From NCBI GenBank assembly GCA_017591395.1, contig WEDG01007594.1, forward strand, positions 1-64,000: 64,000 bases of DNA, written 5' to 3'. The translations under genes were made by a program, and so were the position numbers. Below are positions 1-59,900 of this stretch, piece by piece. Under the pieces are notes generated by a model, which worked only from the letters and a program-made list of their open reading frames with translations, was not told the origin of the DNA and ran no database searches. The first letter of the stretch is position 1; each line of letters begins with the position of its first letter. This DNA comes from Schistocephalus solidus (lineage: Eukaryota > Platyhelminthes > Cestoda > Diphyllobothriidea > Diphyllobothriidae).

Positions 1-695
1 TTACCATATCGGCAGCTAAATCAGCCAATTCAATGCTGTACGCTATCAAGCGGGCATTTAAATTTTTCGAGGAAGACGGCTTTTTCTAAAAGTCTTCGGT
101 TCGTTTATAAGACCATATCTTGAATATGCGATCCAAGCCAGGTGACCATAGACCCAACAGGACTACAAAATGCTCGAAATGGTGCAACGGTGAGCCACAA
201 AACTAGTAAGAGTTCAAGGTGAACTGCCATGTGAGATTCGTCCAAATAACCTAAATTTTCTATCCTCTGAGTTAGACAGTTGCGCGGGAGACTTGATACA
301 TACCTTCCGTATCGTGCGTTGCATGGATTGCACCCTCCTATGAGATGACTTTTTCCAACTCGCCACTACGAATAATCTCCGAGGTCATTCATTCAAACTA
401 AGTGCCTCCGAGTAAGATTGATGTGAAGATGTATTTTTCACCAACCTGAGGCGATTGTAATGTCCCAGTCAGATGGATGAATTCAATCATCAGCTTGACA
501 TACATATGTTGCAGCCCCAAGAAGACTATGTGACCACTTAGCCTTAACAATATTAGTAAACCACGTATATCTGCCTGCATTCCCTTGACTGTAACTTCTT
601 TACATTGCTTTCTTATTTCTTGCTATTTTTTTATGTAACAAATAGGAGTTTCAGAGGCGTAAGCCTATTTTTCCCTCAAATACACTGAACTGAAC
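1..695 (+). mobile_element. Family A LINE, 3' tail (RT C-terminus and 3' UTR), left palindrome arm
   Basis: The plus strand encodes the broken C-terminal end of a CR1-like LINE ORF2. Recognisable pieces include AIKRAFKFFEEDGF, EYAIQARWP and NNLRGHSFKLSA, which match the same region of the long family A copy (EYAIQAWRPW and HLRGHPFKL at about 7.2-7.5 kb, minus strand). The frame is interrupted by several stops and shifts. A 3' UTR follows with the family's tail pattern, 'aaatagg...cctatttttccctcaa', ending in a short ctgaa/aactg repeat near 690. It is mirrored at 5425-6120. It cannot encode a working product. Confidence 0.75.
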
Positions 696-699
696 TGAA

Positions 700-1290
700 C
701 TAATCGTGAAAATATAATTATGGAGTATTTTTGCTGTGAGGAACGCACATGCCGTCAATAAATTCGTTTTTAACTTTTTCGGATGTTTAACGTGAAACTG
801 ATTGGTCTGATATGTGCTAGGGTGCAACGCGCGCGCAGGTCGATTTTCAAAAAGCTATGTGAAATCTAAAAATTTGAACGTTTTTCAGTTTATACTGTCG
901 TTATTGGCTTTAATTGCAGATAAATGTTTTGCATTTCTAGCCCTTAATCGTATATAATTACCTGTGGTCTTTTCTTTAACAATAGGTTAACCATACAGTC
1001 ACATTATTCACCCGACATAGCCTCATTTCTCGTTCTCAACTTTTAGCGTATTTATTTGTTTCCCTGCTATCTTTATTGGCTAAATTGCTGAGAGTTTTGA
1101 ATTCTCAGTTTTTGACAACCTTTACAGCTTGCTATCCTATAAATCCTCGTAGAAAACTTAGAATTATAGCTAGCTAAGATAGAATTAAGTTGAAATTTCA
1201 TAAATTGTATAACCTGCGTATCCTGCATAGATCTTTCTCTTATTTTCGATGAAAGATGAGAACCAACAAGCTCAATTCGTCGTGGCTTCA
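700..1290 (+). promoter_or_regulatory. Probable 5' UTR/promoter region of family B LINE, left arm
   Basis: This AT-rich stretch lies between the preceding LINE tail and the first family B coding similarity. It holds two imperfect copies of a motif, 'ttattggctttaattgcag' near 900 and 'tttattggctaaattgctg' near 1072, about 172 nt apart. It also has a 'catagcctcat' string near 1017 that recurs upstream of the other family B copy at 14.07 and 14.22 kb. Monomer-like repeats in the 5' UTR of a LINE often act as its internal promoter. Promoter activity here is inference only. The same sequence lies inverted at about 4880-5400. Confidence 0.4.
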
Positions 1291-3080
1291 CATGCGACCA
1301 AAACGTTGCTTTGAATACACCTCGCAGTTTCAACATTGACTCAAATGTACAACACGTAGTTAAAGCTAAAACAGCTAGATCTCGTCCGGTTTTACAGAAC
1401 TGCAATGACTTCATTATGAAGTTTGGATCCATTTTGTCTCATGCTCGGCAATCCTGTTCGATGGTATATCTGGATGTCTGCTCCTCAGGACTGCCAGGCG
1501 TCTCGATTCGCTTGTTCACTCTTGGTCGCCAGCGAGGCTTTTATAGGTACGAAACGCAATCACAATTTTCTCTATGTCGTACACAAACGCCCAGTTGACG
1601 TTGCCATGGACTTCTTTGTACTCGGGTGGTTTTAAATGAGAAATGGTGGAAAGCAAAACGCCTCTGCTTCGCGTAGCAAGCTCTATACCAGTTAAATTGT
1701 TGTCAACATTTGAGGGTTGACTCAATCTTTGCTCAACGAGAAATCGCACTTCTCTCGCTATTCGGAAATGACAAAATGTTTCCTTTGTCGAGATCTTACA
1801 CCAATGGACCGGAAGAAACACGGGTCCTTCTTTATCATCAATTTCTCAACCTTAATATTCATAAGTCTCGGGCTTATTTCCACTAACGTCAATGCAACTG
1901 CTGAATTCATCCTCTCCTCAGATGTCTCAGTTCGGTCCAGCTCACTCAACCTTCTAATCTCGTCTCCCCTCGCGGCCGAATGCTGCAGGTTTCGGGCGCT
2001 TTCAAGCCCGCCCGTAATGTTTGCGACCCCGTCTGAAGCATTTATGCGGTCTAACCCGTCTAATAGCATAGACTGCCAGTTTTCCCCTCTTAAAAACGCG
2101 AATTCTCCAGGCCTCTCGGGAGATTTTCAGCCTTATCGCATAAATAACCTTTCAAATACAAAATCCGCACTCGAAGCTAAATTTGACTGGCTAATCCTCC
2201 ACAAGCATAGCTCATCCCATAACCACTATCGGGTCATCCATTTACCCTCAATTATATCACCTCCAAGGCGGGTTTCGGAGTGATTCGTAAAATCCTAACA
2301 CAGACCAAAAGCAAAGATGGCGCTGATCTCGAGAAAGTGATCGCATACCGCCCTCTCCAACAGGCAAATAACCCTAACCACCGTGTAAACCAGCTCATAT
2401 AAGACCTGACTTTCCAGCATTTTAATTCTTATGGCTGCTTGCCATCTCCCATCAGCCCCTTAATTCCATCTAACTTCCCGTCATTCCGTTTTAATGACTA
2501 ACAGGCATATCCGGTCGTAACCCTATGGTGGTTCGATACCGGGAAAGTTTTATTCCTACACCTTTCAGATATCCTTTATCAGCCTTTTGTTAATGACGTT
2601 CTATATACCAATCGTTATGGCGCAGTTGGCAATTACCCTCCAAGCCGCAATAACTTCCAACTTAATTACCCACCTCCAATTTTTTAAAATTAATAATGAT
2701 AACCCTAATTTGGATACTCCGAACTACTCTAGATGTCATATTACTTAATGTTCAGATCTGGTATAAATAAGATGGCCCAACTTAGAGCCATTGCTTTCGA
2801 GTTAATGCCTGATGTTTTATGTGTAACTGAATCTTGGACCCATCCTTAATTTCAAACTCTTTTCCTTGTCATAGACCCATACGATCTCTACCGTCAAGAG
2901 CCCGCACTAGTAAGCGTGGTGGTGGTTGTCTTCTATATTAAAGCTTCATTTAAGCACTTCCTCTGTTTGATCTAGACGTCACGTCATTCTCTGGTAATTA
3001 CTGCTTCGCATCCATTATCCTGTCGCCCTGGCAAAAGGCTATTCTCGGATGTATTTACTAGCCCGCCTAATTCATCGGAT
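1290..3080 (+). mobile_element. Family B LINE, 5' half (broken ORF1 and start of endonuclease), left arm
   Basis: This is the left-arm copy of the first part of family B. Fragments of ORF1 can be read (SFNIDSNVQHVVKAK, then SRYSEMTKCFLCRDLTPMDR), followed by a Ser/Pro/Asn-rich linker and the first endonuclease block (AQLRAIAFELMPDVLCVTES). Frequent one- or two-base shifts break the frame where the right arm is open. Examples are an extra T in ctcttttcc, and aagagcccgc where the right arm has aagaccgc. The coding sequence stops dead at the palindrome axis at a point equivalent to the Pro-Pro after the Gly-Cys-x-Tyr of the related copy at 15.98 kb. No reverse transcriptase is present. Confidence 0.8.
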
Positions 3081-3097
3081 CCGATGAATTAGGCGGG

Positions 3098-3445
3098 CTA
3101 GTAAATACATCCGAGAATAGCCTTTTGCCAGGGCGACAGGATAATGGATGCGAAGCAGTAATTACCAGAGAATGACGTGACGTCTAGATCAAACGGAAAG
3201 TGCTTAAATGAAGCTTTAATATAGAGAAGACAACCACCACCACGCTTACTAGTGCGGTCTTGACGGTAGAGATCGTATGGGTCTATGACAAGGAAAGAGT
3301 TTGAAATTAAGGGATGGGTCCAAGATTCAGTTACACATAAAACATCAGGCATTAACTCGAAAGCAATGGCTCTAAGTTGGGCCATCTTATTTATAACAGA
3401 TCTAGCATTAAGTAATATGACATCTAGAGTAGTTCGAGTATCCAA
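3098..3445 (-). pseudogene. LINE endonuclease (EEP domain), N-terminal fragment
   Basis: A 115-residue open frame holds the first motifs of a LINE apurinic-like endonuclease. These are LNARSVINK (the Asn motif), then CVTESW with the metal-binding Glu, then a GGGCLLYIK strand. In CR1/Jockey-type LINEs this enzyme nicks the target DNA to prime reverse transcription. The catalytic Asp (GDFN) and His (SDH) blocks are missing because the sequence ends at the palindrome axis. The equivalent intact order is visible at 15.66-16.50 kb. It is certainly partial and inactive as it stands. Confidence 0.85.
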
Positions 3446-3461
3446 ATTAGGGTTATCATTA

Positions 3462-3812
3462 TTAATTTAAAAAAATTGGAGGTGGGTAATTAAGTTGGAA
3501 GTTATTGCGGCTTGGAGGGTAATTGCCAACTGCGCCATAACGATTGGTATATAGAACGTCATTAACAAAAGGCTGAAAGGGATATCTGAAAGGTGTAGGA
3601 ATAAAACTTTCCGGTATCGAACCACCATAGGGGTTACGACCGGGATATGCCTGTTGGTAGTTAAAACGGAATGACGGGAAGTTAGATGGAATTAAGGGGC
3701 TGATGGGAGATGGCAAGCAGCTATAAGAATTAAATGCTGGAAAGTCAGGTCTTATATAGCGGTTTACACGGTTAGGGTTATTTGCCTGTTGGAGAGGGCG
3801 GTATGCGATCAC
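3462..3812 (-). pseudogene. Pro/Asn/Tyr-rich linker between ORF1 and endonuclease of family B LINE
   Basis: This 116-residue open frame has no recognisable fold. It is rich in Pro, Asn, Tyr and Phe (pieces such as PFRYPFQPFVNDVL and NYPPSRNNFQLNYPPP). It sits between the ORF1-like domain (4095-4865) and the endonuclease start (3445), as a comparable Pro-rich stretch does in family C (20.16-20.50 kb). It is probably the flexible junction of ORF1 and ORF2. Whether it belongs to the end of ORF1 or the leader of ORF2 cannot be decided here. Confidence 0.5.
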
Positions 3813-4094
3813 TGAGATCAGCGCTATCTTGCTTTTGGTCTGTGTTAGATTTACGTCCTCCGGAAAACCTGCCTTAGGTGATATAATTGAGGGTAAATGA
3901 TGACCCGTGTGGTTATGGGATGAGCTAGCTTGTGGAGGATTAAATAATTTAAATTTAGCTGATTGCGGATTTTGTATTTGAAGGTTATTTATGCGATAAG
4001 GCTGGGGAAATTTCCCGGAGAGGCCTGGAGAATTGCGTTTAAGAGGGGAAACTGGCAGTCTATGTGCTTTAGACGGGTTAGACGGTATAAATGC

Positions 4095-4865
4095 TTAAGA
4101 CGGGGTCGCAAACATTACAGGCGGGCTGAAAGCACCCGAAATTGCAGTATTCGGCCGCGAGGGAGACGAATTAGAAGGTTGAGTGGAGGGGCTGACCGAA
4201 CTAGACATCTGAGAGGATGAATTAGCAGTTGCATTGACGTTAGTGGAAATAAGCCCAGACTTATGAATATTAGGTTGAGAAATTGATGATAAGAAGGACC
4301 CGTTTCTTCGGTCCATTGGTGTAAGATCTCGACAAAGGAAACATTTTGTCATTTCCGAATAGCGAGAAGTGCGACCTCGTTGAGCAAAGATTGAGTCAAC
4401 CTCAAATGTTGACAACAATTTAACTAGTATAGGAGGATTCTTGCTACGCGAAGAGAGGCGTTTTGCTTCCACTATTTTCTATTTAAAACCACCCGAGTAC
4501 AAGAAGTCCATAGCAACGTCAACTGGGCGTTTGTGTATGGGAGCATTTTTTAGGAGAAAATTGTGATTGCGTTTCTGTCTATAAAAAGCCTCGCTGGCGA
4601 CCAAGTGAACAAGCGAATCGAGACGCCTGCAATCCTGAGAGGGAACATCAGATATGTTACCATCGAACAGATTGCCGAGTATAGACAAAATGGATCCAAA
4701 CTTCATAATGAAGTCATTGCAGTTCTGTAAAGCGGACAGATCTAGCTGTTTAGCTTTAACTACGTGTTGTACATTTGAGTCAATGTTGAAACTGCGAGGT
4801 GTATTCAAGCAACGTTTTGGTCCCGAGGCATGTAGTTTACGACGAATTGAGCTTGTTGGTTTCAT
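4095..4865 (-). pseudogene. Family B LINE ORF1 protein (two open pieces)
   Basis: Two adjoining minus-strand frames (4479-4865 and 4095-4472) cover ORF1. They align by eye with the frame at 14477-14938. Shared blocks are LDLSALQNCNDFIMKFGS versus LDLDALENFNTIMSKYGS, HNFLLKNAP versus FNFLLKNVP, and AKRLSSRSKNPP in both, followed by CFLCRDLTPMDRR versus FICRDKTPMERR. The domain is not one I can name. Its place upstream of the endonuclease suggests the nucleic-acid-binding ORF1p of a LINE. The C-terminal part is Ser-rich. A family C relative lies at 19310-19700. Confidence 0.7.
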
Positions 4866-4879
4866 CTTTCATCGAAAAT

Positions 4880-5424
4880 AAGAGAAAGATCTATGCAGGA
4901 TACGCAGGTTATAATAAATTTATGAAATTTCAACTTAATTCTATCTTAGCGCTTTATAATTCTAAGTTTTCTACGAGGATTTATAGGGATAGCAAGTTGT
5001 AGTTGTCTAAAAACTAGAAATTCAAAACTTTCTCAGCAATTTAGCCAATAAAGATAGCAGGAAACAAATAAATACGCTAAAAGTTGAGAACGAGAAATGA
5101 GGCTATGTCAGGTGAATAATGTGACACTGTATAGTTCAACCTATTGTTAAAGAAAAAGACCGCAGGTAATTATATACGATTAAGGGCTAGAAATGCAAAA
5201 CATTTATCTGCAATTAAGCCAATAACGACAGTATAAACGAAAAAACGTTCAAATTTTAGATTTCACATAGCTTTTGAAAATCGACCTGCGCGCGCTTGCA
5301 CCCTAGCACATAAAAAAATCAGACCAATCAGTTTCACGTTAAACATCCGAAAAGTTAAAAAAACGAATTTATTGACGGCTTGTGCGTTCCTCACAGCAAA
5401 ATACTCCATAATTATATTTTCACG
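4880..5424 (-). promoter_or_regulatory. Probable 5' UTR of family B LINE, right arm
   Basis: This is the inverted copy of 700-1290. It is AT-rich with no coding potential, lies directly upstream (minus strand) of family B ORF1 and carries the same two imperfect monomers. A promoter role is inferred only from position and repetition. Confidence 0.4.
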
Positions 5425-6120
5425 ATTAGTTCAGTTCAGTTCAGTGTATTTGAGGAAAATAGGCTTACGCCTCTGAAATCCCTATTTGTTACATAAAAAT
5501 AGCAAGAATAAGAAGCAATGTAAAGAAGTTACAGTCAAGGGAATGCAGGCAGATATACGTGGTTTACTAATATTTTTAAGGCTAAGTAGTCACATAGTCT
5601 TCTTGGGGCTGCAACATATGTATGTCAAGCTGATGATTGAATTCATCCACAGACTGGGACATTACAATCGCCTCAGGTTGGTGAAAAAATACATCTTCAC
5701 ATCCAATCTTACTTGGGGCACACTTAGTTTGAATGAATGACCTCGGAGATTATTCGTAGTGGCAAGTTGGAAAAAGTCATCTCATAGGAGGGTGCAATCC
5801 ATGCAACGCACGATACGGAAGGTATGTATCAAGTCTCCGCGCAACTGTCTAACTCAGAGGATAGAAATTTAGGTTATTTGGACGAATCTCATATGGCAGT
5901 TCACCTTGAACTCTTACTAGTTTTGTGGCTCACCGTTGCACCATTTCGAGCATTTTGTAGTCCTGTTGGGTCTATGGTCACCTGGCTTGGATCGCATATT
6001 CAAGATATGGTCTTATAAACGAACCGAAGACTTTAGAAAAGCCGTCTTCCTCGAAAAATTTAAATGCCCGCTTGATAGCGTACAGCATTGAATTGGCTGA
6101 TTTAGCTGCCGATATGGTAA
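5425..6120 (-). mobile_element. Family A LINE, 3' tail, right palindrome arm
   Basis: This is the inverted copy of 1-695. The minus strand carries the broken RT C-terminus and a 3' UTR that ends at the ttcagttcagttcag repeat near 5425-5440. The two arms agree in gene content but differ by small indels. The copy ends at 6120, where SINE and (TA)n sequence begins. Confidence 0.75.
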
Positions 6121-6150
6121 ATGTCATGCATACATTATATATATATATAT

Positions 6151-6237
6151 ATTGTTAATGTGGAACCGACAAAGACAACGGAGACCGGAATGGCCATTTC
6201 TGGCTTATTAGCCGTCATCAGCCAGTCATACCCAGTC

Positions 6238-6240
<3 letters not shown>
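6151..6240 (-). mobile_element. SINE body, partial copy without tRNA head
   Basis: On the minus strand this reads from tgactggctgatgacggc through gccagaaatggccattccgg to gtctttgtcggttccaca and then runs into (AT)n. It matches the body of the fuller copy at 6291-6447 almost base for base but lacks the tRNA-like head. Similar bodies lie at 49.55, 49.86 and 61.58 kb. Confidence 0.8.

Positions 6241-6291
<51 letters not shown>
6236..6291. repeat. (TA)n microsatellite
   Basis: A nearly pure run of TA dinucleotides separates two SINE copies. Shorter TA runs occur at 6134-6153, 6450-6480 and 6890-6912. They lie at the ends of SINE and LINE tails and probably grew from the retroposon tails. Confidence 0.95.
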
Positions 6292-6293
<2 letters not shown>

Positions 6294-6447
6294 ATGATGT
6301 GGAACCGACAAAGACAAGGGAGACCGGAATGGCCATTTCTGGCTTATAAGCCGTCATCAGCCAGTCATACCCAATCTCAAATATGGAACACCTGGGATTC
6401 GAACCCGCGACCTTTGGTATTTGAGTCGAATGCTCTACCATATAATG
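6291..6447 (-). mobile_element. tRNA-derived SINE, near full length
   Basis: On the minus strand the element opens with a tRNA-like head. An A-box-like atggtagagcattcg (near 6440) is followed about 35 nt on by a perfect B box, GGTTCGAATCC (near 6390). The body then runs through gactggctgatgacgg and gccagaaatggccattccgg to tttgtcggttccaca, ending in (AT)n. An internal RNA polymerase III promoter of this kind drives SINE transcription, and a partner LINE supplies the copying machinery. No long direct repeats are evident because both flanks are simple sequence. Confidence 0.85.
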
Positions 6448-6481
6448 TCATACATATATTATATATCTATATAATATATAT

Positions 6482-6890
6482 TGGATTGTTGCCTGGACTT
6501 CTCGGACTTCTTTGAATTTGCCGCCACGAACCATCTCCGAGGTCACCCATTGAAACTGCGTGTCCAGCAGGCGAGACTGGATGTGCGCAAGTTCTCCTTC
6601 TCTGTCAGAGTCATTAAACCATGGAATGCCCTCCCTGAAAACGTTGTGATATCACCATCGCTGGAAAGCTTTAAACGGAAACTTGACAGTTTTATGTTCC
6701 AAAACGAGCCTGAGTGATGAGGAATTTATCTTAACCCTCGAGATTCGTGCACCACTTGTCATACTTTACGACCGCCTTTTGTACCTTTGCAACCCACACG
6801 GTTTCTCTGTATACCAAACTTAATTTTACGTTGCAAATAGGGTTCTCAAAGGCCCATGCCTATTTCCCTCAATAAATTGAATTGAATTGA
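6482..6890 (+). mobile_element. Family A LINE, 5'-truncated 3' tail
   Basis: A 78-residue frame (6481-6717) encodes the extreme C-terminus of a CR1-like ORF2, with HLRGHPLKL and VRVIKPWNALPENVV as landmarks. These match HLRGHPFKL and QRVVGAWTGLPDEVV of the copy on the other strand at 7026-7310. A 3' UTR follows with 'aaatagggttctcaaaggcc...cctatttccctcaataaa' and a terminal attga/aattg repeat near 6870-6890. It is arranged tail to tail with the long family A copy beginning at 6912. Severe 5' truncation is typical of LINE insertion. Confidence 0.85.
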
Positions 6891-7025
6891 ATAAATATAT
6901 ATATATAATATATAGTCACTTTATTGAGGGAATTAGGCTTTCGCCCTTGAGTTCCCTATTCATATGCAAAAATGTCAATAGTACAAACGTTTACAGTGAT
7001 AAATCTGACAAATGAAAATGTAGGG

Positions 7026-14035: not shown

Positions 14036-14476
14036 AAATATAAAGTTTTTAAACTTTTTCACTCTACATAGCCTCATTAAAGTTCTCGCAGATTTACGTC
14101 AAAAGGACGGAATATAAAGGTTAATTCTAGAAATAAAGTAGAAATTTTTTAAGTTTACCTTATTTCCAGCGAAGAATAATTTGCAGTAACTGGTTTACCA
14201 GTTGATATAATTTTTCATCCTGCATAGCCTCTTCGCTAATTCTATTTTCAGTTTAAACTCGTTACCAAGCAGATATTTGCTTGCAGTGCCTTGCTTAAAA
14301 CACATATTTCAAATATAACATCTTTTATTCCGCAAAACGTCACTAGTGACAATTTTCCTTTCGTATTATCGATTTGAAAAATACTTGTATTTTAAAATCA
14401 ATTTGAAACCACAGTAAGGGCTTAGACGCAAACATCTTTTCGCGTAAAACTTCCACTAGAGCAACCCACCTTAAGC
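14036..14476 (+). promoter_or_regulatory. 5' UTR of family B LINE with monomer-like repeats
   Basis: AT-rich and non-coding. Two imperfect units about 157 nt apart share 'catagcctc' (14068 and 14225) and a 'ttgcagt' start (near 14010 and 14181). The same catagcctc core stands in the 5' region of the palindrome copies of this family. This arrangement resembles promoter monomers of LINE 5' UTRs; promoter function is inference. Confidence 0.4.
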
Positions 14477-14938
14477 ATGAAGAAATTAGACCTTGACGCC
14501 CTGGAAAACTTTAATACCATTATGTCTAAATATGGTTCTCTCTTCACGATCCTTGGTACCATTTTTGAGGGAAAGTTGTCTTCACTCACTTCTCAAAAAT
14601 GCGTGAAACTAAAGCCTTTTATAAACATGGTCAGTACCGAGTCCATTGACCGACATAAGAGAAGTTTCAATTTTCTTTTAAAAAACGTCCCCAATAGTAA
14701 AATCCCCCTGGACGTTGCATTTCATTTCCTTTACTCATGCGGCTTTAACTTTAAAAACGTTGAAGCTAAAAGGTTGTCTTCCCGTAGCAAAAACCCGCCA
14801 GTTCTGGTCAAATGTTTTTCAGCGATTGAAGTTGACCTTATTTTCTCTAAGCATGAGCACTCAGCTCAATATTTAAAAAACAAGTTATTTATTTGTAGGG
14901 ATAAAACCCCAATGGAACGTCGGGTTTCACCCTCATAA
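14477..14938 (+). pseudogene. Family B LINE ORF1 protein
   Basis: A clean 153-residue frame starts at ATG 14477. It has no domain I can name but aligns over its length with the palindrome copies at 4095-4865. Conserved blocks are LDLDALENFNTIMSKYGS, FNFLLKNVPNSKIPLDVAFH, AKRLSSRSKNPP and FICRDKTPMERR. Family C carries a diverged version (HNFILRNIPS, IEVDFILSRKE). By position it is probably the RNA-binding ORF1p. The frame stops at 14936-14938, and a Ser/Pro/Lys-rich reading continues out of frame to 15.45 kb. Confidence 0.65.
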
Positions 14939-15639
14939 GCAAACAAGAAGCCTTCGTCTACACCTTCAATATCAAAAGTTATCTCAGAGGTTTGTCCTGT
15001 AGCTAATGCAAGCCCACGGCCCTCCGGATCGACAGGAATTTCGATTCCAGCTGAATCTTCACCCGTTAACCTTGTTCCTGGTTTGAGTGAAATTGTGTCA
15101 AGACCTCTTCTTTCTCATCCCAAGCAAACCATGCCTGCTTTAGCTGCCAAATCTACTAAACCTAAGCAAACTCCTCGTAAATCTGATTCATTGGCTAATC
15201 CAGGCATTAAAATCAGTAATTTAATTACCGATGGGAAACCTGCTAACCCCTCAGCATCTACAACAGCTGCGAACGCTAACGTTAGCATCTTTCCAAACCC
15301 AAAAAGTGTCCGAAATCCCCAAATAATTAACGCTTCTTATTATGTTACCAGTTTTTCGAAATCATTTATTCCTTTTTCAAATGCACGTTTTTTCCGCCAA
15401 TTTATGCGAACTTCCCTCAAATCTCATTTCTATGCCACCCCCTATCTTTGAAACGCCACAATATAGCCTTCCTTTCCAAGGTTTTCATCCAAATATGCCG
15501 TTGTACAATAATCTCAGTTCTCTTAACAGTAACATTTCGACAAATTGTAGACCAGAGCAATTTGTTTCCCACCTTTCATTTCTTCTTTCCAGTTTTCTTC
15601 TCCGTCACCAAATTATCCTTTTTTATAAATACTGATGAG

Positions 15640-16499
15640 CGTAACCTGCAGCTCAGGAATACGCTCAGCTTAGTTTCACTCAATGCGAGATCAGTTGTAA
15701 ATAAGAGGGCTGAGCTTAGAACAGTAGCCTTTGAGCTTGATCCAGATGTGCTGTGGATCAATGAATCCTGGGTTCACACTCTTATTTCTGACTCGACGCT
15801 TGCTATAGTTAATTTCAATTTGTACCGACAAGACCACGTTGAAAAACGTGGTGGTGGTTGCCTCCTTTATATTAAGTCATCCTTTGTACATTTCCCTTTT
15901 CATCTGAACATTTGTCCTTTTCTGGAAATAAATGCTTTGCTTCAGTCATCCTCCCTCACAATAAAAAAGCGTTAACTGGCTGTGCCTATAATCCTCCGTG
16001 TTATTCTCGCAATGAAAGCGAGCGCTGTGAACTATTTGAAAAAGTTTCAGACACTCAATTTGATGTCAAAATAATCGTAGGCGATTTCAATCTGCCAGAC
16101 ATTGACTGGCAGGCAAATTCCTCTCCGCCTAAACATCAGAAATTGGTCGATACTATTAACTTTTTAAACATGTCCCAACTGGTCAGATCAGTTACTAGAA
16201 ATGACAACATTTTAGATTTAATTTTTACAAATGATGTCCACCCTCTCTTTATGAATTTCCATCATGATATATTCACAAGTGATCACGCAATAATTCACTG
16301 TTGTTTTCCAGTCCCCCTTCTTACGAAGCCTGAGGTTAAATGCAAAAACCTTGACTATGTTAACAAAAACCATGAAATGATAAATAATTTTGAAAGCACT
16401 CTAGATTGGCATAGCATATTCTCAATCAACGATCCAAACTTTTTCCGTGAGCTATTGCAGAGCCTCACAGAAAAAAATCCAGGCTTTAATCCCGTTTAA
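15640..16499 (+). pseudogene. Family B LINE endonuclease (EEP), one frame shift
   Basis: Two frames cover the domain. The first (to about 15975) has VSLNARSVVNKRAELR, WINESW with the metal-binding Glu, and a GGGCLLYIK strand. The second (15912-16499) has VGDFNLPDIDWQ and TSDHAIIHC, so the catalytic Asp, Asn, Asp and His blocks are all present. A single shift near 15.93 kb separates the halves. Family members usually read TESW where this copy reads NESW. The enzyme would nick target DNA for priming. All motifs being present makes this the best preserved endonuclease among the B and C copies. Confidence 0.85.
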
Positions 16500-19309: not shown

Positions 19310-19750
19310 TTGTCGTCTGACGAATTAGTAGATTTTTTGCTTAAAGGAACTATAACCAATGCCTCTGACACAGTTATCCAACAGGATTTTCAAGTCATTG
19401 GGATAATTAGCTCCGAAACCGAAGAACGGATAAAACGCAAGCATAATTTTATACTGCGTAATATTCCCAGTTACATATCTGCTTTCGACGGCGTGCGTTT
19501 GTTTCTGGAAAGCAGTGGCTTGGGATTCTGAGTCGCGTATGCTAAACGACTCCACTCGCTCAGTCGTAATGCCCCCATATTAGTCACGCTCTTTTCCTTG
19601 ATAGAAGTTGACTTCATACTCTCTAGGAAGGAGATTAGTAGATAATTTTGTCGAATATGGCATTCTTCGGTTTCCCCTGACCTCACCCCAATGCAGAGAA
19701 AACTGAGAAATTTTAAATTGTCGACAAGCTACAGAGAAATGACTACCGTT
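19310..19750 (+). pseudogene. Family C LINE ORF1 protein (broken)
   Basis: The first open part (19310-19531) has ERIKRKHNFILRNIPSYIS and VRLFLESSGLGF. After a stop and shifts the reading continues with AYAKRLHSLSRNAPILV, LIEVDFILSRKE and SPDLTPMQRKLRN. The order and spacing match family B ORF1 (FNFLLKNVPNS, FLYSCGFNF, AKRLSSRSKNPP, AIEVDLIF, RDKTPMERR). Families B and C therefore share ORF1 ancestry. Confidence 0.65.
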
Positions 19751-20509
19751 GTTGCCATGTTGAACAAATTGCCTCCAATTTAATCTACGGCTTCGCCATC
19801 TGAATCCCCGGCTAACTCTGCAGACCTTGATTAATCTTTTGGGATCCCAAGAAAACAGTTCTTCCTTTTTTCGTTCTCAAGACGGCAGTACTCCTCCTAT
19901 TACCATACCCATACTTAGTTTACCAGTTACTCCTGGTAAACCAACGCAGATTTCTAGCTCAAAGAAAGTCCGGCTAAAGTCTCAACCACTCGAAAACCGC
20001 AAACATTTAGCCTCTCCACGAAAACTACTCCGTTACGATCGCCTATTTCTCCCCAAAACATCCCCATCCCAACAACATCGAGTTTCCAGCTATCACCCAG
20101 ACCTCATACTGAGGCCGATAAACGAAACATACAAGCATTCTCGCCCAAAAATAGTGCTTCTGTGCCACGCACAACAGTGCATCCCCCACCCCGCAGCCAA
20201 CTTTCTCTACGGTCGTTTCCCCAGTTGTCTCTCAATACGAAGGGTCCTGCTGGACTACTAGACTCACCTGACCTTCTGTGTCACCTTAATAGTAATACTT
20301 TGCAGTATCCTGTCCAGGGATTTCCTGGTCATGCCCCAATAGCTAGCAGTTGTGCTCAGTTCCCCTGTCTGTCATTTCCACCTCCATATTTTACTCCGCT
20401 TCACCCACATCCGGCGCGTATGATCCCACCTTTTTTCCAGTACAGGGCGGGAGCACCCACCCCCTATGTTCAGTGGCCCGTGAACCACTGGATGAATTAG
20501 CCGCTCTCC

Positions 20510-21215
20510 CTAAAAAACAACCACCTTGCCCACTTAAACTGTTCGTACTAAATGCCAAATCCTTGCTCAATAAAATGCCCCTGCTTCAGACTCTAGTCAT
20601 TATCCACTGTCCAGATATCGTTATAGTAACTGAAACATGGGCAACACCTTCCGTAGCCGACCCCGAACTCTCTCTTATAGGTTATACTTGTACTCGAAAT
20701 GATCGCCATGACAGTCGTGGTGGAGGAAGCTGTATCTATATAAAACAAGCACTGAAATTTGGACCTTAGATCATCAACAATTTACTGCGGTTGACGAGAG
20801 CTGCTGGCTTCAAATTACCTTAAAAATAGGAACTCTTTACTCATTGGCTGTGTCTATTGCCCGCCCAATACCAGTGAGGATTTCGATCTTTGTCTCTCAC
20901 AAGCATTCCATGCCGCAGTTGACTTAAATTTTAAGTATTGCTTAATTGCAGGTGATTTCAACCTTTCTGACATTCGCTGGTTTCCGGTCCCCTCCGGCCT
21001 CATAAAGTTCGAGGACTTTCTCGAGGCCGTAGATATTGGCATGTGGACCCAGGTTGTTGACTTCCCTACCCAAGGATCAAGCATACTTGATCTAATCTTC
21101 TGCAGAGGTTGCCTGCCTTTGACAGTGTCATCATTAGGCCCACTTGGGAGCTCAGACCATGATATCGTTGTTTCTACACTACAACTCGAAACCGATGAAA
21201 TGCTTTCCAAAAAAT
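20510..21215 (+). pseudogene. Family C LINE endonuclease (EEP), one frame shift
   Basis: The first half (to 20768) has LFVLNAKSLLNKMPLLQ, VIVTETWATP with the metal-binding Glu, and RGGGSCIYIK. After a shift at about 20.77-20.83 kb the second half reads LIGCVYCPPNTSEDFDLC, CLIAGDFNLSDIRWF, SILDLIFCRG and LGSSDHDIVV. All catalytic blocks of the EEP nuclease can be seen. It ends at a stop near 21215, before the RT connector. The minus-strand open frame over the same bases is a shadow. Confidence 0.85.
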
Positions 21216-21296
21216 AAAGCTTTTTCTTTGATTTTCGATTAGCGCTTTCGACAGAATTATTGATACATCTTAACTCCCACGACTGGTCTAATTTCT

Positions 21297-21617
21297 TTGT
21301 GTCAGGATGTGAACACCTGTACCTGTATGCTTTACGAAGTTTTAGATGCACTTATTTCTCGTTTTGTTCCCCGTAAGAAATTAATTAATGTCATGGATGA
21401 GGTTTATCTCCCTTTATCTTTTCGCCGTAGGTTGCGTAAACTCTCTCGTCGATTCCATTTTCAAAACGACATTTCCGTTCTGCCCTTGATTCACCGTAAT
21501 TTTGAGCAGGCCAAGAGGCTAACCAAAGAAAAACGGCTAGCCGAAAGGGGTCAAATATGTCGAAAACCGTTCGTTAAATCTAGCGAAACTTTTTTCACGC
21601 GCAATAAGAATCCATAG
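21297..21617 (+). pseudogene. Family C LINE connector between endonuclease and RT
   Basis: A 106-residue frame is rich in Arg, Lys and Phe. It includes LDALISRFVPRKKLINV, LPLSFRRRLRKLSRRFHF and FEQAKRLTKEKRLAE. LINE connectors of this kind usually read 'P.w....l..l...k...w...k' between the two enzymes. It is followed by broken sequence until the RT entry motif at 21.84 kb. Confidence 0.6.
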
Positions 21618-28176: not shown

Positions 28177-28199
28177 CGGCAGTTCGACCGTCGATTTCG

Positions 28200-29640
28200 A
28201 CGAGGTCCACCTTATGCTCCACACCAGGTGGTGCAGGGACGGTGACTTGCGCGTGAGTTAGTTTTAAGTGATAGTAGTCTTGCGCTGCAGCTACCGCACT
28301 CTCTCCTCCTCCCCGACCTGAGCCCGGTGTCAAGACAGAGTCAAGAAGACCGGAGATGGGAGAGGGCGCAGGTGGCTGGCGCGGCCGGAGCCGCCCCTGG
28401 GCGTGCCACCACACCTGGCTCGGATCCCACGGAGTGGGAGTGCCATAAAGGCCACATTAAGAAGGAGCCATTGCAACCTGACTCTCAGTCCGCCAGTCAG
28501 ACACGCCACACAAAACACACATTGGGCTGACCTCGCGGTCCGAGTTATCCCCTCAGTTGGCAACCTTCCAAGCCACGGCTTTTAGCGCACCATGATAGGT
28601 TCAAGCGCATCAGATTGTTTATAGTGAGGAAAATACGCTGAGCTCTCGACCTCACTCTCTTCCCCACCCCCAAAATCAGACCACTGTCCGAGCCGGTCAG
28701 TTGTCTGATGCGGAAGCAGGCGCAGCTGCTGGTGACCTCGTCTACGTGTACTACGTACACGACCTGGCCCCCCAAACACAAGCACCAGGATTTCACACAA
28801 CAGGGGGTTAAATGGCTTACATCTCACATGTGTGAGATAGCCAGAGGTCACGTTAAGAAGGAGCCATCGCAGGCTGACTCTCAGACCACCAGTCAGCCAC
28901 TCCACACAACACACATTGGACTAACTGCGAGGTCTGAGTGTAATTGTCAGTTGGCAAACTTCCAACCGCGGCGGTTAACGTTACCGACACTCTTTACCTC
29001 CCCCACCTGAGCCCGGTCTCACGACACAGGCAAGAAGACCGGAGATGAGAGAGGGCGCAGGAGGCTTGCGCGGCCAGAGCCGCCCTGGACGTGCCAACAC
29101 ACCTGGCTCGGATCCCACAGAGTGGGAGTGCCATAAAGACCGCATTAAGAAGGAGCCATTGCAGCCTGACTCTCAGTCCGCCAGTCAGCCACTCCACACA
29201 AAACACACATTGGGCTGACCACGCGGTCCGAGTTATCCCGTCAGTTGGCAACCTTCCAAGCCACGGCTTTTAGCGCACCGTGATAGTTTTAAGCGCGTCA
29301 GATTGTTTACAGTGAGGAACATGCGCTGAGCTGTCGACCTCACTTTCTCCCCAACCCCCACCATCAGACACTGTCCGAGCCGGTCAGTTGCCTGATGTGG
29401 GAGTGGGCGCATTGGCTGATGGATCGGCGTACCCGTCTTCGCGCCCCACAGCACGACCTGGCCCCCAAAACGCACACACCAGGATTCACAAACTCAGGGG
29501 ATAGGGAGCAGCCATCGACGTCTGACTCCCAGTCCACTGGTCAGCCACTCGACACACACAGCACATACACTGAGCCGACGGCGTGGTCTGGTGGAAGCGT
29601 CAGATTGGCAGACTTCCCAGCCACGGTTTCTAAGAGACCG
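28200..29640 (-). repeat. RTE 3' UTR with internal module repeats (688-bp tandem unit)
   Basis: The block with 'gtggcttggaaggttgcc', 'aactgacgggataactc' and 'gtgggatccgagccagg' occurs at 29290-29090 and again at 28600-28400, an offset of 688 bp. A more diverged third version lies at about 28985-28830. The same block appears at 38.2, 45.07 and 56.95 kb. Small open frames over it on both strands are shared between copies only because the DNA is similar, and they are not evidence of a gene. Confidence 0.8.
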
Positions 29641-29824
29641 TGATATACTCTGGTAAATGGTGATTGTGAGGGTGTTGTCGATGTATTCGTGTAGGTAGTG
29701 TGTGCTGATGTAGCTTAACCTCCGGTGGTTTACCAGAGGTTGTTGTGGAGGCGTATGTGTCTTAATAGGCCCATGTGGTGTGTAAATGTGCGGGAGCAGT
29801 GAAGGCGGGCGCGTCGACTGTATG

Positions 29825-30530
29825 TCAGAGCCCCAGGCACTGGTTCACCAGCCTCCGTGCGACGGATTCGCAGGTGACCGACCAGGCCGATGCGTGAGTT
29901 GAAGTTGCGGGCGCAGTGGGGGCAGGAAAAATCGGTAGAGGCTGGGGGATGTCATTCATGGTAGTGGGGGTGGCAGGGGCGGTAAGAATGGCAGGAGCGG
30001 AGGGTGTGCATGGTGTATCGGTGTTGTCGGCATTGTGGGGAATTCCGCTGTCATGGATGCGCATGTGACCGAATAGGCCCATGCGATGAATGAATGCGCG
30101 AGGACAGAGAGGGCAGTGGAGGCGACGATCTCTGCTGTGTGATGGTGCTCCAGGCACTGGCTCACCGGTCTCTGTACGATGTATTCGCAAGTGACCGACC
30201 AGGCCGATGCGTGAGGTGAATGTGCGGTCGCATTGAGTACAGCTTAGGAGAGATTCCCCATCGCTGATGGTGGTGGTGGTGGTGGTAGTGAAGGCGAAGG
30301 CGGTGGTGGGGTAGCAGGCGATGAGTAGATGGATGTGTTCTCTATGATGGTGGAAGTAATGGAATTGATGCCATGAGTGAGGGTGGGGGAGTCAGAAGGA
30401 GGGTTGGCAGAATTTGACGTAGAAATTGGAATTGTCGGATTGTTGGTGCATTGTGTCCGAAGATGTCCAACCAGGCCGATTCGCGCGCGGAAGATGCGTT
30501 GACAGCGCGGGCATGTTGGCAGGGCCTGGG
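29825..30530 (-). pseudogene. RTE LINE C-terminal C2H2 zinc-finger region
   Basis: Fingers in order are [19 protein letters not shown] (third zinc ligand H, last one lost in this finger), [20 protein letters not shown] with following H, CPLCPRAFIHRMGLFGHMRI with following H, and [19 protein letters not shown], in which the final His has become Arg. A last finger is shortened (HCSRTFTHHMGL), losing its Cys pair. A stop breaks the frame at 30244. The fingers probably bind the element's RNA or target DNA; this is an inference from their place at the ORF2 end. Ser/Thr/Pro linkers separate them. Confidence 0.8.
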
Positions 30531-49549: not shown

Positions 49550-49712
49550 GAATGATATAACCGACAAAGGCAAGGGAGACTGGAATAGCCATGTCCGGCT
49601 TATTAGCCGTCGTTAAACACCCATACCCGACCCAGGTGGTGCACCACCAAGGGATCGAACCCGCAACCTGTTGATTAGAAGCCAAACGCTCTAAACATTG
49701 AGTCACTGGCTC
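49550..49712 (-). mobile_element. tRNA-derived SINE, full copy
   Basis: On the minus strand a tRNA-like head lies at about 49705-49645. It has the B-box string gggttcgatcc, one base short of consensus, and an upstream ctagagcgtttgg A-box-like string reading as catg...agagcg. The body gtatgggtgtttaacgacgg, taataagccggacatggc and ccttgcctttgtcggtta follows. It is the same family as 6291-6447, with substitutions. Confidence 0.8.
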
Positions 49713-49852: not shown

Positions 49853-49990
49853 GGTAGAATGATATTATCCAGAAAGACAAGAGAGACTGGAATGACCATT
49901 TCTGGCTTATTAGCCGTCGTCAGCCAGCCATACCTAACCCCAGGTGGTGCCCCACCCGAGGATTGAAACCATCTGGTTTCAAGGTTTCGT
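49853..49990 (-). mobile_element. tRNA-derived SINE, diverged or truncated copy
   Basis: The body is clear (taataagccagaaatggtca, tccagtctctcttgtctttc). The head is worn: the B box reads ggtttcaatcc and the A-box half is missing beyond about 49985. It lies 140 bp from the previous copy in the same orientation. Confidence 0.75.
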
Positions 49991-56900: not shown

Positions 56901-59900
56901 TCACTATAAACAATTTTACGCGCTTGAAACTATGATAGTGCGCTAAAAGCCGTGGCTTGGAAGGTTACCACAGACAGGATAACTCGTACAGCGCTTCCAG
57001 CTCACTGTCTGGAGTGGCTAACTGGCGGACTGAGTCAGGCTACAACGGCTCCTTCATAATGCGATCTTTATAACACGCCCACTCCGTGGGATTCGATCCA
57101 GGTGTTACGGCACGCTTAGGGGCGGCACTGGCCGCGCCAGTCACCTGCGCCTTCTCCTATCTGCGATATTCTCGACTTGGTCATGACAAGGGGTGCAGGT
57201 GGAGGAGAAGGAGAGAGTGCGGTAGATGCTGCGTACGTCTACTCTTACTATAATCTAATTCACGCGCAAGTCACTGTCCTTGCACAACCATGCTATGGAG
57301 CACACAGTTGGACATCGCCGGACTACGACAGTCGAACTGCATATCTTATAAATACTGCAAAACCTACGCAATCCACTACCCTTACCTGACTTCGTTTCTG
57401 ATTCTGGATTCGAGTGAAAATTCGATATGTCAGACTAACAAAGTTTTTGTTCTAGCGATCATGTCTCCCTCTTGATGACTGCTTCCCGAAACTCGCCTCT
57501 TTAAATTCAAAGCAGTCCGACTAAGGCCTCTTGTGTGAACGTGGCCTCACTTGAATTTCAGCGTTTGAGCAAGACTGACCGTTGGGGGGGGGGGGGGGGA
57601 GGGGGCAACCATGCCAAAACAAAGCGGGACTCTCGAAGAGAACAGAAACATGGACACAGAAGTTCGTAACTCATTCTCCGTTAAGGTAGCCGCCAGTTTT
57701 GAAGACTCCTTCAATGTTAATATAGTTATAGAAGGGAGATACGCGCACGCATACCGCTTGCTCAGGTCTGTGTAGAAAATCCGTGAGGACAACGAAGCTC
57801 ACGTTCCGATTTGATCGCGGTTTTTCAGAAATAGATTGTGTCCGACTGCGAAGATCTCCGGCAGGACTGATATGAGAGGCGCCTGCGGAGAATGACAAAT
57901 TCAGAGTTCCACCGACCGCTCCTGTGCAGGTGGTTGCAATACCGCTATCAGCAACAATTCCAACAACCCCCGACGGGCAAGAGTCCGTAGCTAGACTCTG
58001 CAGGGAGGGCTCGGAGAAATGGGTGCTCTGGCGCTTGGATGAGGGTGTGAGAGGGTTAGTGACAGCGGCTGAAACCTTCGGTCCGACGTCCGCAGCCGTG
58101 ACCGGAAAAATGCGTTCGGGCTGCTTCTGGGGTGGATCAGACGATGGCATGGAGTTGGAGCGGCAAGCAGCTGACCGCATCATCACTTCCACGCCCTCCT
58201 TGGTTTTCTCTGACGACGGTTGTTTGGTCAACATCTGGATGGCAGTAGTACCAACGTTGCCGGAAGTACAGGAGAAGAGAACGGCTTGTGAGTCTCCAAC
58301 CCAGGCGGTGTAAATGAAGTCTTCGTGGAGCAGACAAACGGTGGCAGTTGTCCCGGAATTCCAAAGCTGTCGTGCATAAAAGTAAACTTAAGCCAATGGA
58401 GAAAAGAGGGGGTGATACGAGTCGCGAAATATCACTAGGATGCCTGGTTCGGCAAATAGATCTAAAGTGAGTCGTAGCAATAAATAGAAAAATAACGTGT
58501 TGCCCACAATCAGCTATTCTAGTTAATGCTGGGTGAAATTGTACCCAAGGCAGCTACGTCATAAAAACAACACTTTCTAGGGGAGTGGCGGCATTTGAGA
58601 CTTCGAAAACGGAATACAAATAGCCCTGTATTCGAAATGTTCGCTTAGAAGTGTTTATATAATTGGTAGGTATAGTGTTTTCGTTTTTCAGAATAATGCG
58701 CGTACTTCTCCGAACGTGACCCTTAGTAGTGCACGAGTGTACACAAACTGTGGTCTCTAAGGCTCAGCAGCCCATGAAAATAATACAATTACGTTGCGAC
58801 AAAGAACTGAAGACGGCCTGAAAAACCGCTGAAACATTACTGCTACTGCTGCAACACTTTAGATTACTGCAACTACTGGGCTGAAGCTCTCGATATCTGG
58901 AAAACTTACCAAGGATTAAAATTTGCACCAAAAATAAATGTTCAAACAAACGGAGGGATATAGTCAGCGTGTGTTTAGTATCTGGAGTTGCGAACTTGTA
59001 GACTTGGGGAATGCGTCTTCTCAAAACGACAGACATCGACTTGAAAAGCTCGTTGGTTCATAAAAAATTACCGTCCTTAATGCGGAGTCGGTTTTGGACG
59101 TATCCGTCCAAACGGCTGACGATGCATAAGTTCGCCGCGCGGACCCCACTGAGAAAAGCCTACATACATGGATAAACTACTAGGTAGAAGCGAAAACACC
59201 GAAATACAACGGGTCGAGCCACCTCTGTAGGATATATAAATCGAAATTAGAAAAGTAGATGTAGGACCACAGAGCGGCCACATTGTGAGAGTATTAGAGG
59301 ATAGGTTCTAGAAGTCGCCGCTCAGAGTAGACGCTGCAGCACGAGCACCCAGATAAGGTGGACGAAAACGATAAAAGGATACGAGGACCGGGTTGAATTT
59401 CGTTGAGATGTATCCAGAATCTTAGACAAGGATTGCAGAAGGACTGTAGGTGTTTCGGTCTGTTATGGTCCCCTTTCCAGTGCCATAAAAGAAGTGTTTG
59501 ATTTACTTCATATGAAGACCGCTGTTACCTGACTCCAATCACATAAAAGCCTGGTTTGACAGGACTATGCAGCCGTGTGCTGGGTCGTGTAAGTTGAACA
59601 GACGAACCCTTTTTCCGCAAACCTGACAAGCAGGTGGCGTGATTGAAGGTGAAACACATCAATGAAAGGCCTTGGGACAATGTATCCACTGATTTCAGGG
59701 AACTGAGAGCCAGACAATAGAGGAAGGAAAATGGCGCCTAGCAGATGAGGAGATATAGACGTCCTTCGTGATTATATTAACCGAGAACAGTACAAGAGGA
59801 TGTGGGAGCTAAGGTTTTGCTACCGACCCGGAGACTGAAAAACAATGCTTCAGTTACTGAGCGCACTTCTCAAAAAGAGTTTTACAGCGAAATTTAAAAT

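What the first reader, a model, noticed from the sequence alone, without database searches (positions are those of the whole stretch)
1..6120. Six-kilobase palindrome with zero spacer; arms differ mainly by short indels
The axis is exact (3080|3081) and falls inside endonuclease codons of a LINE, so it is not explained by transposon ends. In the places compared, the arms differ largely by 1-5 nt insertions and deletions, many in homopolymers. This is the signature of two passes of one noisy long read (missed hairpin adapter or fold-back cDNA/DNA) kept as genome sequence. If real, it is a recent inverted duplication able to form a very large cruciform or hairpin RNA.
Basis: partly seen in the sequence, partly recalled or inferred. 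Interest (0 to 1): 0.75.

Follow-up and report, generated by a model that had tools for sequence, protein, structure and literature searches.

The report
Fold-back sequencing artefact at window edge
The first six kilobases of this sequence, probably from a tapeworm, read as a mirror image, but one half is an error-ridden copy of the other, as expected when a sequencing machine reads a DNA strand and then reads back along its partner and the result is kept by mistake.

Summary
The palindrome is there as letters: 1-3079 is the reverse complement of 3080-6120, with no spacer (axis 3079|3080, one base left of the claim) and 115 exact bases on each side. Over 3147 columns the arms differ by 55 mismatches and 118 indel events, 2.15 indels per mismatch; seven ordinary repeat pairs of the same window have 0.06-0.29. 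New here: the differences are one-sided. Against five relatives of the LINE in the arms, the left arm needs 3-11 frameshifts per protein and the right arm 0-1. All 11 amino-acid-changing mismatches that relatives can judge fit the right arm. So the right arm, continuous with the flank, is genuine LINE DNA. The left arm is the same sequence plus about 5.5% difference events, rich in transitions, near single-read quality. Best explanation: a fold-back long read extended the assembly past its true end and was poorly polished. A genuine palindrome read badly in one arm is not excluded: no reads were available, and the window's own genome did not answer in 8 of 8 requests. Position 6120 only mirrors the window's first base; the true outer limit is unseen.

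The parts
1..3079 (.). Left arm: noisy reverse-complement copy of the right arm, judged to be the false half
   Evidence: 55 mismatches and 118 indel events against the right arm; 3-11 frameshifts per relative
3079..3080 (.). Axis, between these two bases, no spacer, 115 exact bases on each side
3080..6120 (.). Right arm: clean, continuous with the right flank; 6120 mirrors window base 1 and is not an observed boundary
   Evidence: 0-1 frameshifts per relative
3101..3466 (-). LINE endonuclease fragment in the right arm, cut short near the axis
   Evidence: Pfam Exo_endo_phos E = 2.2e-5; P0002 of Schistocephalus solidus 90% identical over 66% of the query
4095..4868 (-). ORF1-like region of the same LINE in the right arm, in one frame with one internal stop at 4479-4481 and ending at a stop at 4095-4097
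   Evidence: P0004 of S. solidus 95% identical over 98% of the 4482-4868 query
3465..4094 (-). Open frame that continues the ORF1-like frame, no relatives found
   Evidence: none of 65 candidates at E <= 0.001
5680..6118 (-). 3' part of the reverse transcriptase region of a second, older LINE in the right arm; two separate tblastn stretches, 6118-5909 and 5802-5680
   Evidence: tblastn with window proteins; homology not seen upstream of 6118

Best explanation
A fold-back (inverted-chimera) long read was used to extend the assembly past the point where real data ended. A strand was read from the right flank to the axis, and its complement was then read back without a spacer. The right arm was cleaned by ordinary reads of the locus; the left arm exists only in the chimeric read or in very few reads and kept near-raw errors. 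Shown: no spacer, one-sided errors where they can be judged, an indel-rich and transition-rich profile. Inferred: the read-level cause, a nanopore-like platform, and that the window starts at a contig end.
For: 2.15 indel events per mismatch against 0.06-0.29 in seven repeat pairs of the window. Frameshifts left/right: P0001 8/1, P0002 5/0, P0003 3/0, P0004 11/0, P0005 7/0; with two proteins of the window's own LINE copy, not found through the right arm, 9/0 and 7/0. Of 21 mismatches in the two coding stretches examined, 11 change a residue and have a relative: 11 of 11 fit the right arm; 6 are synonymous, 4 have no relative. 173 of 3147 columns start a difference, 5.5%, near the 5.7% reported for nanopore reads of bacteria with one basecaller (PMC8486125, passages). 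42 of 55 mismatches are transitions, p = 8e-11 against one third, as reported for nanopore and not PacBio reads (PMC7671305, passages). Fold-back reads make up about 0.55-0.6% of nanopore genomic reads and often have no sequence between the halves (PMC12870357, parts 1-3 of 5).
Against: No reads, depth or contig position could be seen. Insertions exceed deletions in the left arm, 81 to 37 (p = 6e-5), while nanopore errors are reported as mostly deletions or about even. The differences are clustered, while long-read errors are reported as rather uniform along reads. At 4097 the right arm has a stop codon and the left arm GAA, with no relative to judge it. One noisy arm is also what nanopore gives for genuine inverted duplications (PMC7229812, parts 1-2 of 4).
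Confidence: 0.88

Rival explanations
1. A real, very recent inverted duplication without spacer (for example sister-chromatid fusion after a break) whose second arm was read badly. Nanopore reads lose accuracy in the second arm of genuine inverted duplicates, so the noise would reflect the chemistry and not a chimera.
For: 80-100% of reads over known inverted-duplicate junctions had low quality in the second arm in yeast (PMC7229812, parts 1-2 of 4). The right arm and the axis are otherwise ordinary genomic LINE sequence.
Against: A real palindrome should also be read from its left side, which would give a good left arm (inference). The second-arm effect is reported to miss bases, so that the bad region is shorter; here the noisy arm is longer, 3079 against 3041 nt. 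No left flank is seen.
Confidence: 0.09
2. An old palindrome, or two inverted LINE insertions, whose arms diverged by ordinary mutation.
For: LINE fragments are common in the window. 42 of 55 mismatches are transitions, which natural divergence also gives (recalled).
Against: Indel events outnumber mismatches 118 to 55, against 0.06-0.29 per mismatch in seven repeat pairs. The judgeable changes fall in one arm. Both arms hold the same two LINE fragments with the same junction, which independent insertions would not give.
Confidence: 0.01
3. The same kind of artefact by another route: a missed hairpin adapter in a PacBio read, whole-genome amplification, or end-to-end ligation of two copies of one fragment before sequencing.
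For: Insertions exceed deletions 81 to 37, and PacBio raw reads are insertion-rich. Amplified DNA gave 11.8-47.8% palindromic reads against 0.5% in the unamplified control (PMC6218980, part 1 of 6).
Against: Transition excess, 42 of 55, is not reported for PacBio. No spacer or adapter remnant at the axis. The library preparation is unknown. This route is a variant of the best explanation, and its odds are counted inside it.
Confidence: 0.2

Closest known systems
Fold-back artefact reads (Breakinator paper, PMC12870357; parts 1-3 of 5 read)
   Same: Second half is the first half on the opposite strand at the same place, without sequence between the halves
   Different: That paper describes reads; here the pattern sits in an assembled sequence and one arm is clean
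Inverted duplications read by nanopore with a degraded second arm (PMC7229812; parts 1-2 of 4 read)
   Same: One arm normal, the other with many errors, change at the axis
   Different: There the bad region is shorter than the good one; here the bad arm is longer
[quoted passage not shown] part 1 of 6 read)
   Same: Artificial inverted repeats in long reads that disturb assembly
   Different: Amplification is not known for this sample, and only one palindrome of this size is in the window (listing cut at 120 rows)
LINE of Schistocephalus solidus (proteins P0002 and P0004)
   Same: Endonuclease 90% (66% of the query) and ORF1-like region 95% (98% of the query) identical to the right arm
   Different: The window's copy is a decayed fragment cut by the axis; the species of the window is not proven

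Membership tests
Fold-back long-read artefact kept in an assembly | Two halves that are reverse complements of one another at the same place | tested here: met
   2918 of 3147 columns identical
Fold-back long-read artefact kept in an assembly | Breakpoint of the two halves within 200 bp | tested here: met
   No spacer, axis 3079|3080; criterion from PMC12870357
Fold-back long-read artefact kept in an assembly | Axis near the middle of the read | not testable with these tools
   No reads available
Fold-back long-read artefact kept in an assembly | Other reads of the locus do not support the junction | not testable with these tools
   No reads available; own genome not answered
Fold-back long-read artefact kept in an assembly | Differences with the profile of sequencing noise, not of mutation | tested here: met
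   2.15 indel events per mismatch against 0.06-0.29 in seven repeat pairs; judgeable ones are in the left arm
Fold-back long-read artefact kept in an assembly | Error types of one known platform | tested here: inconclusive
   Transition excess like nanopore, insertion excess unlike it
Genuine inverted duplication | Junction-spanning reads and double depth | not testable with these tools
   No reads available
Genuine inverted duplication | Unique flank beyond both arms | tested here: inconclusive
   Right flank present after 6120; the window ends at base 1 on the left
Nanopore second-arm degradation of a real palindrome | Bad arm shorter than the good arm through missed bases | tested here: not met
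   Left arm 3079 nt, right arm 3041 nt

The most novel reading that the evidence does not exclude
A true DNA end closed as a hairpin, or fused sister chromatids, in a tapeworm: a closed end read straight through would also give a palindrome without spacer and with a poorly read second arm, and the letters alone do not exclude it.
Probability: 0.02. Interest if true: 0.7.

Novelty: not a real feature. Interest (0 to 1): 0.1.

Why it matters
It shows how the false arm of an assembly palindrome can be picked out without reads: relatives of a decayed coding element serve as yardstick, and repeats of the same window give the natural ratio of indels to mismatches. In practice 1-3079 should be masked or cut, since it would otherwise count as a false inverted duplication and a second copy of these LINE fragments. 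If it were real, it would be a very large, very young palindrome.

Tried and rejected
Old diverged palindrome or independent LINE insertions: rejected on the indel/mismatch ratio and the one-sided errors. LINE 5' inversion (twin priming, recalled): it inverts a piece without duplicating it, and each arm here holds two LINE fragments in the same order.

No result: protein search with 3465-4094 minus, none of 65 candidates at E <= 0.001. So 34 of the 55 mismatches, those outside 4095-4868 and 3101-3466, were not put to relatives, and 4 of the 21 inside had no relative. Rfam 0 matches, ARAGORN 0 tRNAs. Paper listings showed no long-read genome paper of S. solidus (20 of 4,372 listed; 4 of 4; listings only). 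One search found 0 papers; nothing new was opened.

Limits of the tests: P0001-P0005 were found with right-arm translations and could lean towards the right arm; two proteins of the window's own LINE copy were not found that way and agree. The seven control pairs are 7 of the 8 best-scoring other repeat pairs; the eighth, left out, has 221 mismatches and 10 gap openings. Some of the seven overlap one another at 28180-29889, so they are not all independent.

Full report
Observation. Self-comparison shows an inverted match of 1-6120 with itself at 92.5% (listing cut at 120 rows). The arms meet without spacer at 3079|3080, one base left of the stated axis, with 115 exact bases on each side; of the 20 axes tested from 3070 to 3089 no other exceeds 2. 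The arm alignment has 3147 columns, 2918 identities, 55 mismatches, 37 events (68 nt) missing from the left arm and 81 events (106 nt) extra in it. Of five other gap settings, three gave the same counts and two gave 49 mismatches with 120 indel events and 83 with 102. The end at 6120 is the mirror of window base 1, so the palindrome's extent is unseen.

Ordinary divergence? Seven repeat pairs of the window give 0.062, 0.087, 0.159, 0.129, 0.146, 0.092 and 0.286 indel events per mismatch; the arms give 2.15. Fisher's test against one pair, with BLAST's counts for it (7 and 149), gives p = 9e-37; the same pair under the arm aligner has 9 and 144. The pairs partly overlap and are 7 of the 8 best-scoring ones. 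The differences do not look like mutation. They are clustered: variance over mean in 100-column bins 2.17, p = 0.0005 in 2000 permutations. The longest identical stretches, 142, 115 and 107 nt, are not unusual: in 2000 random placements the longest averaged 109 and reached 242.

What the DNA is. On the minus strand, from the flank inwards, the right arm holds the 3' part of an older LINE (stretches 6118-5909 and 5802-5680), then the ORF1-like region (4868-4095) and endonuclease (3466-3101) of another LINE, cut near the axis. Proteins labelled Schistocephalus solidus match the endonuclease at 90% over 66% of the query and the ORF1-like region at 95% over 98%. The source is therefore probably a diphyllobothriidean tapeworm (taxonomy); the species is not proven.

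Which arm is wrong? Relatives were aligned to each arm with a frameshift-tolerant aligner. Frameshifts left/right: P0001 8/1, P0002 5/0, P0003 3/0, P0004 11/0, P0005 7/0. A simpler second aligner gave P0001 8/1, P0002 5/0, P0004 9/0, P0005 8/0; P0003 was not rerun. Two proteins of the window's own copy at 14426-15921, not found through the right arm, gave 9/0 and 7/0. Other LINE copies of the window needed 0-2 frameshifts against these proteins, ten comparisons, some of them weak. Of 55 mismatches, 21 lie in the two coding stretches examined: 11 change a residue and have a relative, and 11 of 11 fit the right arm; 6 are synonymous; 4 have no relative. Among those 4, at 4097 the right arm has a stop codon where the left arm has GAA. 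Against P0004 each arm also shows one stop. The right arm's one frameshift (P0001) lies about 17-21 nt from the axis and is present in the left arm too, so it predates the mirroring.

Nature of the noise. 173 of 3147 columns start a difference, 5.5%. 42 of 55 mismatches are transitions (p = 8e-11 against one third). Transitions are reported as elevated in nanopore reads, and A-C and G-T transversions as slightly elevated in PacBio reads (PMC7671305, passages); PMC8486125 (passages) also reports a transition excess for nanopore, and a mean error of 5.7% for bacteria and 6.6% for human with one basecalling mode. Against a plain nanopore reading, insertions exceed deletions 81 to 37 (p = 6e-5), while those papers report mostly deletions or about even rates; and the clustering differs from the uniform errors reported along reads. 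The platform is a lean, not a result.

Mechanism. [quoted passage not shown] After whole-genome amplification 11.8-47.8% of reads were palindromic, against 0.5% in the control (PMC6218980, part 1 of 6). One such read at the edge of an assembled region would extend it back along itself. Ordinary reads polish the true arm; the false arm keeps the read's errors except where correction happened to work, which could explain the clusters. These steps are inferred.

The serious rival. Nanopore reads over genuine inverted duplications also go bad in the second arm (PMC7229812, parts 1-2 of 4), so a noisy arm alone does not prove an artefact. I favour the artefact because a real palindrome would also be read from its left side, which should give a good left arm (inference), and because that paper's bad regions are shorter than the good ones whereas the noisy arm here is longer (3079 against 3041 nt). 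Whether the window starts at a contig end could not be learned: 8 of 8 requests to the window's genome were unanswered. Indirectly, the mirror of base 1 lies 2 nt from where LINE homology stops and about 16 nt from a TA-rich tract, a likely place for an assembly to break.

Verdict. The letters are as described, the feature is very probably not biology, and the left arm is the part to discard.

Noticed in passing
6136-6245, 6275-6384, 49559-49693, 49873-49937: A repeated element: two direct copies at 92.7% with an (AT)27 tract between them, and relatives at 75-90% near 49.6 and 49.9 kb. Beside them at about 6404-6452 and 49650-49690 the minus strand reads like parts of a tRNA (motif recalled), so it may be a tRNA-derived SINE; ARAGORN found no tRNA.
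   Followed up: partly
1-3079: The left arm's noise has more insertions than deletions (81 to 37) and 38 of 62 single-base insertions repeat a neighbouring base; the excess of insertions does not fit the usual nanopore profile and stays unexplained.
   Followed up: partly
3077-3082: The centre of the palindrome is GGATCC. Any such centre is palindromic and this one has a 1 in 64 chance, but it would also fit end-to-end joining of two copies of a fragment at a GATC overhang (recalled).
   Followed up: no
4095-4097: In-frame stop TAA in the right arm's ORF1-like frame where the left arm reads GAA; no relative covers the site.
   Followed up: partly
6836-6960: A 125-bp stretch that is its own inverted repeat at 76%; by eye it looks like two LINE 3' tails meeting end to end.
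   Followed up: no
14426-16499 and about 19337-21300: Two further copies of LINEs related to the one in the arms, with ORF1-like and endonuclease parts.
   Followed up: partly
57674-58387: Minus-strand open frame with a protein phosphatase 2C match, E = 1.7e-8, likely part of a host gene.
   Followed up: no
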